Shown piece by piece: positions 9,317 through 26,927 of a DNA stretch of 33,378 nt. A program made the position numbers and the translations under genes. The notes under the pieces are model-generated. The model saw nothing but the letters and a program-made list of their open reading frames with translations. It searched no databases and was not told where the DNA came from. Every line of letters starts with the position of its first letter. Within the stretch, counting starts at the first letter, position 1. Source of the DNA: Thermoleophilaceae bacterium (GTDB lineage Bacteria > Actinomycetota > Thermoleophilia > Solirubrobacterales > Thermoleophilaceae); the NCBI GenBank assembly GCA_036378175.1, contig DASUWY010000006.1:1-33378 (forward strand), read 5' to 3'.

Positions 9317-10294
9317 CTACGAGCGGCTGCTCGACCGTGAGCGGCTCGAGCGGGATGCGCTCGGGCTGCCGCCATTCGAGCTCGAGCGAGTCGAGCGCGA
9401 GCTGCGGGACCCGGAGCTGCGGGTGGATCCGCTGCTGCGCGAACCGCTGCTGCGCGAGGAACCGCTACTCCGCGACGACCCCGTGCTGCGCGAGCTGCCG
9501 GACGAACCACTGCTGCGCGACGAGCCGCTGCTGCGCGACGAGCCGGAGCTGCGGGTGGACCTGCTGCTGCGCGACGAGCCGCTGCTCCGCGACGAGCTGG
9601 AGCCGCTGCGCGACCGCGACGACGTCGAGCCCGACCTGCTGCGCGACGAGCTGGAGCCGCTGCGCGAACGCGACGACGACGAGCTCGAGCTGCTGCGCGA
9701 ACGCGACGAGGACGACGAGCTACGCCGGCGCGAGCTGCTGCGGCCGGTCGGCCGCTGCGACGCCGGGATCTCAGCAGTGGCCACAGCCTTCGTGAGCTGC
9801 GGGATCTGGCGCTCGAGGAACTTCGACATCCGCTCCTCCTCGCGCCGGATGCGCTTGGCGAGCTGTGCCGTGTCCTTGTCGCCGACGGCGGTGGCGAGCG
9901 TCTCGATCGCGGTGTAGGTGGCGATCTCCTCGGCCTCGTCCTGGAACTCCGTCTTGGCGTTCTTCAGCATCTTCTCCTGCTCGCCCGTGCCGCGGGCCAT
10001 GTGCAGCGGACCCTGCGCCAGCGCCGCAGCCTTGTTGGCCGCGGTCTGCAGCGTGTTCGCCGCGCCGGCAACGCCGTCGGCGCCGGCCTGGCCGCCGAGC
10101 TGCTTGATGCGCCGCTCCACGTCACGCGCGTGCGCCTTGGTCTCCTTGAGATGCTCCTGGAGCCGCTTCTTGTAGGGCGCGCGCGTGGTCATCGCGATGT
10201 GCGCCTCGAGCGCGGTCTCGAGTTGCTTCTCTTTTCCATAAGCCTCGTTGAGGTACTGCACGAGCTTCGAGTCGCGCTCGTTGAGTTCAGCCAT
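9317..10294 (-). CDS. DUF892 (YciF-type ferritin-like) protein with a long Arg/Ser-rich tail
   Basis: 325 residues from the ATG at 10294; GGAGG and AGG motifs lie upstream. Residues 4-172 are a ferritin-like four-helix bundle of the DUF892/YciE-YciF stress family: LVQYLNEAYGKEKQLE, LEAHIAMT, HLKETKAHARDVERRIKQLGG, DEAEEIATYTAIETLA and IRREEERMSKFLERQI carry the Glu/His residues that bind the di-metal site. From about residue 182 to the end the chain is almost only Ser, Arg, Gly and Thr (RSSSRRRSSS, SSRSRSGSS, RSSGSSRSSG repeats), about 140 residues. This highly basic, disordered tail is unusual for the family and could bind nucleic acid or polyphosphate. A stress-sigma-like promoter lies upstream, facing CsbD. 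Confidence 0.9.
   Translation of the reverse strand: MAELNERDSKLVQYLNEAYGKEKQLETALEAHIAMTTRAPYKKRLQEHLKETKAHARDVERRIKQLGGQAGADGVAGAANTLQTAANKAAALAQGPLHMARGTGEQEKMLKNAKTEFQDEAEEIATYTAIETLATAVGDKDTAQLAKRIRREEERMSKFLERQIPQLTKAVATAEIPASQRPTGRSSSRRRSSSSSSRSRSSSSSSSSRSRSGSSSSRSRSGSTSSRSRSGSSSSRSSGSSRSSRSTRSSGSSRSSGSSRSSGSSGSSRSTGSSRSSGSSRSSGSRSSGSTRSSGSRSSRSTRSSSNGGSPSASRSSRSRSSSRS
9420..9740 (-). repeat. Degenerate tandem repeats encoding the Arg/Ser tail
   Basis: Internal DNA repeats built on GCTGCTGCGCGACGAGC-like units encode the RS tail. One 25-bp block, CGACGAGCTGG followed by AGCCGCTGCGCGA, occurs at about 9590 and again 54 bp later, a multiple of three, so length changes would keep the frame. 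Repeat slippage between strains is plausible. Confidence 0.7.
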
Positions 10295-10341
10295 GCTTAC
10301 CTGCCTCCCGGGAGGATTCGGATTCCGGTCGAGGATTCGTA

Positions 10342-10366
10342 ATACCCAACACACGCAGGGCGACAC
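10342..10366 (-). promoter_or_regulatory. SigB/SigF-like stress promoter for the DUF892 gene
   Basis: On the minus strand GTGT (10366-10363) is followed after 15 nt by GGGTAT (10347-10342). This matches the GNNT-N14-16-GGGTAT form of actinobacterial SigB/SigF promoters. The start codon lies about 47 bp downstream. The -35 is weaker than that of the facing CsbD promoter. Confidence 0.55.
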
Positions 10367-10382
10367 CCCGGGCGCGCTAACC

Positions 10383-10407
10383 GTTTGGAGCGAGGTCTCA
10401 TGGGTAG
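10383..10407 (+). promoter_or_regulatory. SigB/SigF-like stress promoter for the CsbD gene
   Basis: GTTT (10383-10386), 15 nt, then GGGTAG (10402-10407), a close match to the SigF/SigB consensus GTTT-N15-17-GGGTA. The predicted start site near 10413 leaves a leader of about 34 nt carrying GAAGGGAG before the csbD ATG. Confidence 0.65.
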
Positions 10408-10446
10408 GACTGAGATGTCCCGATCGACCGAAGGGAGCTATTGCCA

Positions 10447-10638
10447 ATGGGCATCCTCGACAAGATCACCGGGCGCGCGAAGAAGGCGGCCGGCGACATC
10501 GCGGACGACGCGTCACTCCGCCGCGAAGGCAGGCAGGAGGAGCGCAAGGGCGAGGCCAAGGACGAACTGGCGAACGCTCAGGAGAAGGCGGACGCCAAGG
10601 CCGAAGAGGTCGCGAACCTCGAGCGTAAGACGAACTGA
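10447..10638 (+). CDS. CsbD-family stress protein
   Basis: 63 residues, very hydrophilic. MGILDKITGRAKKAAGDIADD and RREGRQEERKGEAKDELANAQEKADAK are the hallmark pattern of CsbD (PF05532), small proteins induced by general stress sigma factors in Bacillus and other bacteria; molecular function is unknown. The ATG at 10447 is preferred to the TTG at 10441 because GAAGGGAG ends 9 nt upstream. It is transcribed from its own stress-type promoter and faces the DUF892 gene, which belongs to another stress-induced family. It ends 3 bp before the stop of the convergent small membrane peptide. Confidence 0.9.
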   Translation: MGILDKITGRAKKAAGDIADDASLRREGRQEERKGEAKDELANAQEKADAKAEEVANLERKTN

Positions 10639-10641
10639 CGT

Positions 10642-10734
10642 CTAGAGCTTGATCAGCACGATGATCGCGCTGATCACGACGCAGATGATGATCACGATCT
10701 GCATCGCGATCCAGAAGCGCGGCAGCTGGTTCAA
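10642..10734 (-). CDS. 30-residue single-pass membrane peptide coupled to the response regulator
   Basis: A small open frame starting with TTG at 10734 and ending with TAG at 10642. The start overlaps the TGA of the response regulator gene as TTGA, a classic translational-coupling arrangement. The product begins MNQLPRFW and continues with about 20 hydrophobic residues rich in Ile and Val (IAMQIVIIICVVISAIIV), ending in LIKL: one transmembrane helix with a short Arg-containing N-terminus and a terminal Lys. The frame fills the gap between the two neighbouring genes exactly. No Shine-Dalgarno is seen, so expression would depend on coupling. Function unknown; a membrane partner of the regulator is speculation. 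Confidence 0.5.
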   Translation of the reverse strand: MNQLPRFWIAMQIVIIICVVISAIIVLIKL

Positions 10735-11360
10735 TCGATGAGCGACTGACGGAGCGCGATCGCGACGGCGTGCGTGCGGGTGTCCGCCTGCAGCTTCGCG
10801 ATCACGCGCTTCGTGTCCGACTTCACGGTCTCCACGCTCAAGCCGATCCGCCGGGCGATCTCCTCCGTGTGATAGCCCTCGGCGAGTAGCTGAAGGATCT
10901 CTCGCTCCCGTTCGCTCAGCGGCTGCTCGCGACTGCCCGCGCTCGTCATGAGCAGCGCGGGTGAGAGCGAAGGGTCCACGAATGGCTTGCCCTCGGCCAC
11001 CGTGCGAATCGCGCGCAGCAGGTCCTCAGGAGGCGAGCCCTTCATCACGTAGCCGCGGGCCCCCGCCGCGATCGCGTCCGACAGGAGTCGCTTGTCGCCG
11101 TACGCGGAGAACACGACGAAGCTCACGTTCGGCGCGGCCTCGTGAATGCGCTTCACGGCCGAGATGCCGTCGATGCCCGGCAGGCGGACGTCGATCAGGA
11201 CGATCTGGGGGTTGAGCCGCGCCACCGCCTCGAGCGCCTCCTCGCCGGTCTCGACCGTGCCGACCAGCTCGAGGTCGTCGAGCTGTCCAAACAGGAGGTC
11301 AAGGCCCTGGCGGACGACGGGATGGTCATCTACGCCAAGGCAGCGAGTCCGGGCGCCCAT
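10731..11360 (-). CDS. NarL/LuxR-family response regulator
   Basis: 209 residues from the ATG at 11360. The receiver domain (about 5-120) has the acidic pair Asp11-Asp12, the phosphoacceptor Asp57 in IVLIDVRLPG, Ser85 in FSAYGD and Lys107 in YVMKGSPP. The C-terminal LuxR helix-turn-helix (about 140-205) has LSEREREILQLLAEGYHTEEIARRIGLSVETVKSD. No sensor kinase is adjacent, so its partner is elsewhere. Starts further upstream are possible (an in-frame ATG 36 bp earlier), but the receiver begins immediately after Met at 11360. It is divergent from the universal stress protein gene and coupled to the 30-residue membrane peptide. Confidence 0.92.
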   Translation of the reverse strand: MGARTRCLGVDDHPVVRQGLDLLFGQLDDLELVGTVETGEEALEAVARLNPQIVLIDVRLPGIDGISAVKRIHEAAPNVSFVVFSAYGDKRLLSDAIAAGARGYVMKGSPPEDLLRAIRTVAEGKPFVDPSLSPALLMTSAGSREQPLSEREREILQLLAEGYHTEEIARRIGLSVETVKSDTKRVIAKLQADTRTHAVAIALRQSLID

Positions 11361-11458
11361 TCTGGTGATGGTACAGCGGTTGAGCCATTGCTGCATGAAT
11401 TCGGCGCGTGCGGCGCATATGATGCGCGCGCTGCGCGTCGGCAACGGGAAGGAGAGGG

Positions 11459-11902
11459 ATGTTCAGGTCAATCGTGGTGGGTACGGACGGCTCTGAAACG
11501 GCAAAGGAGGCCGTACGTCAAGCCACGGAGTTGGCCAAGAGCATTTCGGCGGAGCTGTACGTCGTCAGTGCGTACGAGCCGGTGCCGGAGGGGCGCCTCC
11601 GTGCGGAACGCCGGGACGCGCCGGACGACCTCCAGTGGTCGATCAACCCGCGGGAGGACGTGGAGGCCACCCTCAGCGGCGCCGCTGACTCGATCCAGGA
11701 GTCCGGGGTGAAGGTCGAGACGTTCGCGCGCGAGGGCGATCCCGCGGATGCGATCCTCGACGTCGCCGAGGAGCGAGGTGCCGACCTCATCGTGGTGGGC
11801 AACAAGGGCATGACCGGTGCGAAGCGGTTCCTGCTCGGCTCGGTGCCGAACAAGGTGTCGCATCACGCGCCGTGCAGCGTCCTCATCATCCGGACGACCT
11901 GA
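11459..11902 (+). CDS. Universal stress protein (UspA family)
   Basis: 147 residues, single Usp domain. MFRSIVVGTDGSETAKEAV starts the Rossmann-like fold, and the ATP-binding G-2x-G-9x-G-S pattern is complete in GNKGMTGAKRFLLGSVPNKV, followed by the terminal strand APCSVLIIR. It therefore probably binds ATP. AAGGAGAGGG directly precedes the ATG as a strong Shine-Dalgarno. It is divergent from the response regulator; a TATGAT at 11418-11423 could be its -10. Usp proteins act in dormancy and stress responses. The 3' end overlaps the convergent hydrolase gene by 17 bp. Confidence 0.95.
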   Translation: MFRSIVVGTDGSETAKEAVRQATELAKSISAELYVVSAYEPVPEGRLRAERRDAPDDLQWSINPREDVEATLSGAADSIQESGVKVETFAREGDPADAILDVAEERGADLIVVGNKGMTGAKRFLLGSVPNKVSHHAPCSVLIIRTT

Positions 11903-26745: not shown

Positions 26746-26898
26746 ATGGAGCGAGAAGAGTCGGATCAGCTGCCAGAGGAAGGCCCGGCCGAGCAGGTGC
26801 CCGACGACGAGGGCGGCGAGGCGCGCGAGGACGCGGAGCGGAATGAGCCCGCGGACGATGATGGGCAGGCCACTGGGCATCCGCCCAACGCCGGCTAG
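26746..26898 (+). CDS. Small acidic hypothetical protein
   Basis: 50 residues, about a third Glu/Asp, with no hydrophobic core: MEREESDQLPEEG, DDEGGEAREDAERNEPADDDG. Intrinsically disordered by composition. It starts 13 bp after the basic protein and probably shares its stress promoter, so an acidic/basic pair is made together. No family recognised. Charge-based pairing is a guess. Confidence 0.6.
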   Translation: MEREESDQLPEEGPAEQVPDDEGGEAREDAERNEPADDDGQATGHPPNAG

Positions 26899-26927
26899 GT
26901 CATAGGTCATAGGTCATAGGTCATAGG
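26897..26927 (+). repeat. Tandem AGGTCAT heptamers
   Basis: Four perfect AGGTCAT copies plus AGG occupy 26897-26927, directly upstream of the DUF3291 GTG and just after the acidic gene. In GC-rich DNA this AT-richer array is unusual. It could set a variable promoter-to-start distance or bind a protein in series. Replication slippage is likely. Confidence 0.85.

What the first reader, a model, noticed from the sequence alone, without database searches (positions are those of the whole stretch)
9317..9870. Ferritin-like stress protein with an arginine/serine-rich tail like eukaryotic SR proteins
The DUF892 protein ends in about 140 residues made almost only of Ser, Arg, Gly and Thr in RS and RSSG repeats. 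DUF892/YciF proteins are normally about 165-170 residues and stop after the four-helix bundle. The tail is strongly positive and should be disordered. It could bind DNA, RNA or polyphosphate, as the tails of some Dps proteins do, or drive condensates, and Ser/Thr phosphorylation could tune it. This would be a tailed, possibly nucleoid-associated, iron-storing protein. Function is speculation.
Basis: partly seen in the sequence, partly recalled or inferred. Interest (0 to 1): 0.65.

Follow-up and report, generated by a model that had tools for sequence, protein, structure and literature searches.

The report
Ferritin-like stress protein with basic tail
A soil actinobacterium's ferritin-like stress protein ends in a long floppy, strongly positively charged tail; relatives keep the charge while swapping the letters (serine/arginine or lysine/alanine), which suggests the tail grips DNA or another acidic polymer rather than working like a eukaryotic splicing protein.

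Summary
Window 10294..9320 (-) encodes a 325-residue protein: a DUF892 (YciE-like, ferritin-fold) domain, residues 1-178, then 147 residues of which 142 are Ser, Arg, Gly or Thr, with no Asp, Glu or Lys. The tail is neither a frame artefact nor a local slippage product. It marks a clade (39 distinct proteins, support 100/100) confined, in the genomes sampled, to Thermoleophilia/Solirubrobacterales. All have a basic tail of 14-180 residues. Tail sequence is not conserved; charge is: 1 acidic residue in 2568 across 38 tails, against about 2.6% in codon-position-preserving shuffles. Tail chemistry switches repeatedly between Ser/Arg-rich, mixed and H1-like Lys/Ala/Pro (PAAKK). So the eukaryotic SR-protein analogy is superficial and Ser phosphorylation cannot be the shared mechanism. 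Canonical ExxH iron-ligand motifs are absent, although four Glu are invariant or nearly so; iron storage is undecided. HU in these genomes is tailless, the one ferritin/Dps-family protein has no basic tail, and Lsr2 was not found in this genome. Best explanation: a YciE-type stress protein tethered non-specifically to DNA by a disordered cationic tail, working like the tails of mycobacterial Dps1 or HupB. Binding itself is untested. New variant of a known kind.

The parts
9761..10294 (-). DUF892/YciE-like ferritin-fold domain, residues 1-178 (helices 6-35, 39-65, 105-136, 140-175)
   Evidence: PF05974 54.6 bits; AF2 pLDDT >90; 3hiu Z 21.1, YciE 3ogh Z 19.1
9320..9760 (-). Disordered basic tail, residues 179-325, 147 aa, 97% Ser/Arg/Gly/Thr, net charge +31
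   Evidence: Composition; mostly low pLDDT, no secondary structure; basic tails in all clade members
9317..9319 (-). Stop codon
10299..10312 (-). Shine-Dalgarno-like stretch (GGGAGG/CAGG) upstream of the ATG
   Evidence: Read in sequence; not tested
10295..10446 (.). Intergenic region shared with a divergent CsbD-like gene; probable promoter region
   Evidence: no sigma-70 consensus found

Best explanation
The protein is a YciE-type DUF892 stress protein that has gained a disordered cationic C-terminal tail in Thermoleophilia. The four-helix domain (probably a dimer, as in YciE/YciF) supplies the ancestral, still undefined protective or oxidoreductive activity. Its tails, two per dimer, bind nucleic acid (most likely chromosomal DNA) non-specifically through phosphate-Arg/Lys contacts, placing the domain on the nucleoid and possibly bridging or condensing DNA under stress. 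Shown here: fold and tail disorder (both predicted), clade-wide conservation of positive charge and exclusion of acidic residues, free exchange of residue type. Inferred: dimer, DNA as ligand, nucleoid location, stress function.
For: All 39 distinct clade members have basic tails (NCPR +0.17 to +0.44, 14-180 aa), while the sister paralogue group is neutral and other actinobacterial DUF892 proteins are tailless. They form one clade, 100/100. There is 1 acidic residue in 2568 across 38 tails, against a shuffle mean of 2.6%, minimum 2.0%. Tail types SR/KA/mix change many times on the tree (14 changes in all; for SR, at least 4 forced by starred branches), as expected if only charge and disorder are selected. 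The folded domain is also less acidic in this clade: mean net +2.7 against -4.9 and -7.9. Some tails carry PAKK/KAAK-like H1 repeats (L017, L029), the motif type of mycobacterial HupB, whose tail is indispensable for nucleoid association (PMC5676037). Deleting the last 16 residues of M. smegmatis Dps abolishes DNA binding (PMC13319912); its basic tail was compared with protamine (PMC3026007). HU in all 27 readable loci of these genomes ends without a tail, the one Dps/ferritin-family hit outside DUF892 has no basic tail, and Lsr2 was not found in this genome.
Against: No binding, localisation or expression data exist. A basic tail could equally bind RNA, ribosomes, polyphosphate or acidic proteins. 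Some members have tails of only 12-24 residues, which would bind weakly. The gene is not linked to DNA-related genes and gene order is not conserved outside the genus.
Confidence: 0.6

Rival explanations
1. The tail binds another polyanion: RNA or ribosomes, or polyphosphate, under stress, with or without condensates; DNA binding is incidental.
For: Arg-rich, Gly/Ser-spaced disordered tails are typical of RNA-binding and phase-separating proteins (established knowledge); window and L006 tails are enriched in RS dipeptides and poor in adjacent basic pairs.
Against: Clade members with Lys/Ala/Pro H1-like tails have the composition of DNA-compacting tails; nothing in the gene neighbourhood points to RNA or polyphosphate.
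Confidence: 0.22
2. An SR-protein-like switch: Ser/Thr kinases phosphorylate the tail and tune binding or condensation.
For: 61% Ser in the window tail with RS dipeptides above shuffled expectation.
Against: Orthologous tails with 5-7% Ser (L017, L029, L054) do without; RS enrichment is not clade-wide. Could still hold within the window's genus.
Confidence: 0.08
3. The tail is a functionally neutral, slippage-driven low-complexity extension.
For: Imperfect tandem repeats, length differences between close relatives and a relaxed pN/pS of 0.4-0.9 in tails.
Against: Acidic residues excluded far below expectation, positive charge kept through repeated changes of residue type, and no tailless member in the clade.
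Confidence: 0.05
4. The tail works in the cell envelope, binding anionic wall polymers.
For: A cell-surface proteomics paper from Anabaena turned up in the DUF892/YciF literature search (PMC4103569, listed; not read further).
Against: No signal peptide or membrane segment is apparent by eye at the conserved N-terminus MAELNERD... (sequence).
Confidence: 0.05

Closest known systems
DUF892 family PF05974: E. coli YciE (3ogh) and Xanthomonas XCC3681 (3hiu)
   Same: Domain family and fold (Z 19.1 and 21.1); four Glu in register (E22, E51, E123, E153) and ExxM instead of ExxH in the last helix.
   Different: The known structures end after the bundle (166-173 aa chains); here a 147-residue basic tail follows.
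M. smegmatis Dps1 with its basic C-terminal tail
   Same: Ferritin-fold core with a disordered basic C-terminal tail; stress protein in Actinomycetota (PMC3026007, PMC13319912).
   Different: Dps belongs to PF00210 and forms dodecamers with a ferroxidase centre; this protein scores under the PF00210 cut-off alone (22.4 against 24.5), and its assembly is unknown. The tail here is far longer than the 16 residues deleted in Dps.
Mycobacterial HupB (HU with H1-like PAKK/KAAK tail)
   Same: Lys/Ala/Pro tails of several orthologues are of the same kind; tail needed for nucleoid binding in HupB (PMC5676037).
   Different: Unrelated folded domain; the window's own tail is Ser/Arg-rich with no Lys.
Eukaryotic SR proteins
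   Same: RS dipeptides in the window tail above shuffled expectation.
   Different: No RNA-recognition domain; RS content not conserved among orthologues.

Membership tests
DUF892 (PF05974) | Profile match above the gathering score | tested here: met
   54.6 bits against 23.7
DUF892 (PF05974) | YciE/YciF-type four-helix ferritin fold | tested here: met
   AF2 model; 3hiu Z 21.1 rmsd 1.4 over 141; 3ogh Z 19.1
DUF892 (PF05974) | Protein ends at the bundle (~160-173 aa), as in solved members (usual, not strictly defining) | tested here: not met
   325 aa with 147-aa tail; this makes it a variant, not a reason to exclude it
Ferritin/bacterioferritin-type di-iron protein | ExxH motifs in helices B and D plus Glu in A and C | tested here: not met
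   E22, E51, E123, E153 invariant or nearly so, but the His positions are A54/variable and M156; the ExxH rule is from general knowledge. A carboxylate-only site is not excluded
Dps | PF00210 match over the cut-off | tested here: inconclusive
   22.4 against 24.5 alone; 24.7 with neighbours in frame
Dps | Dodecameric cage and ferroxidase centre at dimer interface | not testable with these tools
   Only a monomer was modelled
Dps | Basic disordered tail that binds DNA | tested here: inconclusive
   Basic, disordered tail present; binding not testable here
Eukaryotic-type SR protein | RS-repeat region conserved in the family | tested here: not met
   RS+SR above shuffles in window and L006 but at expectation or near zero in L018, L032, L017, L029, L019
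Eukaryotic-type SR protein | RNA-recognition domain | tested here: not met
   No such Pfam match
Nucleoid-associated protein | Binds and localises to chromosomal DNA | not testable with these tools
   Needs gel shift and imaging

The most novel reading that the evidence does not exclude
In Thermoleophilia, where HU has no tail and Lsr2 was not found in this genome, a ferritin-like DUF892 protein has become a lineage-specific nucleoid-associated protein: an H1/protamine-like cationic tail of freely interchangeable chemistry delivers a stress-protective ferritin-fold domain to DNA.
Probability: 0.35. Interest if true: 0.7.

Novelty: new variant of a known kind. Interest (0 to 1): 0.5.

Why it matters
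DUF892/YciF proteins are widespread stress proteins with no settled function. A clade that carries a DNA-binding-type tail gives a handle on where the family acts. The natural series of orthologues with the same domain but Ser/Arg, mixed or Lys/Ala tails of 14 to 180 residues is a ready-made test of how far charge alone, rather than sequence, sets tail function. It would also suggest which protein compacts DNA in a large, little-studied soil actinobacterial class.

Tried and rejected
Opposite-strand ORF (9423..9917 +, LLRDEPLLRDE): rejected as the gene, since the minus frame is the conserved one (domain pN/pS 0.04) and orthologous tails of other composition would not preserve it. Upstream TTG start (376 aa): rejected, orthologues start at the ATG. 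Operon or conserved neighbourhood: none beyond the genus; clusters shared by many loci were only the gene itself, and CsbD/Usp/regulator neighbours recur essentially only in the same genus. Tail residue type explained by GC content: no correlation (K/(K+R) rho -0.21, p 0.20). Relatives on plasmids: none. Other proteins with this tail in the own genome: none found with the tail as query, but low-complexity searching is weak. Promoter consensus: none. Literature on tailed DUF892: nothing found in the open library. Phyla other than Actinomycetota were not surveyed for tailed DUF892 proteins, apart from the plasmid collection.

Full report
Observation. The minus strand from 10294 to 9317 encodes a 325-residue protein. 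Residues 11-170 match DUF892 (PF05974) at 54.6 bits, cut-off 23.7. The last 147 residues are 61% Ser and 21% Arg; with Gly and Thr these make 142 of 147, and there is no Asp, Glu or Lys. The start at ATG 10294 is backed by orthologues that begin at the same Met and by a ribosome-binding-like GGGAGG. The mechanical 376-aa ORF in the list comes from an upstream TTG and is not supported. Serine is written with both codon families (TCG 41, AGC 34, TCC 11) and the DNA repeats are imperfect, so the tail is not one pure DNA repeat.

Relatives. A scan of genome contigs gave 30 loci, all from Thermoleophilia/Solirubrobacterales or actinobacterial MAGs. Searches of 61 relatives, 250 genomes of the class and 296 of the phylum added more. 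Among the 61 relatives, 24 carry a copy at 54% identity or more. Matches above about 50% identity have a basic tail in every case read, including two genomes of another order of the class (family f74) with short 21-residue tails, and one at 48% with 12 residues. At about 45% identity lies a second group with a neutral linker and a different C-terminal part; farther DUF892 proteins of the phylum are tailless.

Conservation of charge, not sequence. The 39 distinct tails are 14-180 residues long with net charge per residue +0.17 to +0.44. Leaving out one tail with an altered end (L022) and the first eight residues of each tail, there is 1 acidic residue in 2568; shuffling each codon position separately gives 2.6% on average and never below 2.0% in 200 trials. 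Residue choice is free: Ser/Arg-rich in the window and many Thermoleophilaceae, mixed Arg/Ala/Thr in others, and H1-like Lys/Ala/Pro in several Solirubrobacterales (e.g. AAAKKPAAKKATAKKATAKK in L029). On an IQ-TREE tree of the domains the tailed proteins form one clade at 100/100, while the tail type needs many changes. Long tails are less dense in charge than short ones (rho -0.68). In close pairs the tail evolves at pN/pS 0.4-0.9, the domain at 0.04-0.32. The pattern is that of a disordered segment under selection for positive charge, not for motifs.

Structure. AlphaFold2 gives a confident four-helix bundle and a tail with no secondary structure, pLDDT mostly 43-61. The nearest solved structures are the DUF892 proteins XCC3681 (3hiu, Z 21.1) and YciE (3ogh, Z 19.1), then bacterioferritins and Dps. 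Glu22, Glu51, Glu123 and Glu153 are invariant or nearly so, as are His48 and Tyr127, but the two His of the usual ExxH motifs are not there: position 54 varies and position 156 is Met throughout. The printed alignments show the same pattern in YciE and XCC3681. Iron storage is therefore not established; a carboxylate-only metal site remains possible.

Mechanism. Disordered basic tails bind DNA non-specifically in two actinobacterial precedents: M. smegmatis Dps loses DNA binding on removal of its last 16 residues (PMC13319912; compared with protamine in PMC3026007), and HupB needs its H1-like tail to associate with the nucleoid (PMC5676037). In the genomes studied here HU has no such tail in 27 of 27 loci where its end could be read; Lsr2 was not found in this genome; its one other ferritin/Dps-family protein has no basic tail. 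I therefore judge that the tail most likely tethers a YciE-type stress domain to DNA. The choice of DNA over RNA or polyphosphate is inference. Phosphorylation of the Ser/Arg tail may add regulation in this genus, but cannot be the shared function, since orthologous tails with 5-7% Ser exist.

Context. The gene lies divergently next to a CsbD-like gene (40.1 bits, cut-off 40), followed by a LuxR-type response regulator and a universal stress protein. This stress-flavoured neighbourhood is shared essentially only within the genus; elsewhere the gene stands alone.

Verdict. Observation confirmed; interpretation partly supported and reframed: not an SR-like protein but a clade-defining, charge-conserved cationic tail on a YciE-type protein. 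No description of it was found in the papers that could be searched. That library holds open-licence papers only, so absence there is not proof of novelty.

Noticed in passing
L060-L065, L137, L139, L140; own genome L002: A sister DUF892 paralogue group (~45% identity) carries a neutral Ala/Arg/Glu linker or Pro/Glu-rich linker and one or two copies of a helical-looking unit (e.g. PWPGYDELNVGEVERALTAADRERVAKIRDYERRHKGRQGVLEA) with no significant Pfam match.
   Followed up: partly
L035:4001-4640: One orthologue has an in-frame TAG at codon 47 with the rest of the frame, including a basic Lys/Arg/Ala tail, intact: recent pseudogene or assembly error.
   Followed up: partly
L022:4508-4750: Tail starts H1-like (KRPAAKKAPAKR) and then changes character with five or more acidic residues, as after a frameshift.
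   Followed up: no
window 10447-11902: CsbD-like protein, LuxR-type response regulator and universal stress protein next to the DUF892 gene.
   Followed up: partly
window 26896-26927: Perfect 7-base tandem repeat TAGGTCA, 4.6 copies.
   Followed up: no
L004 (own genome C71): A protein with two apparently tandem DUF892-like domains in one frame.
   Followed up: no
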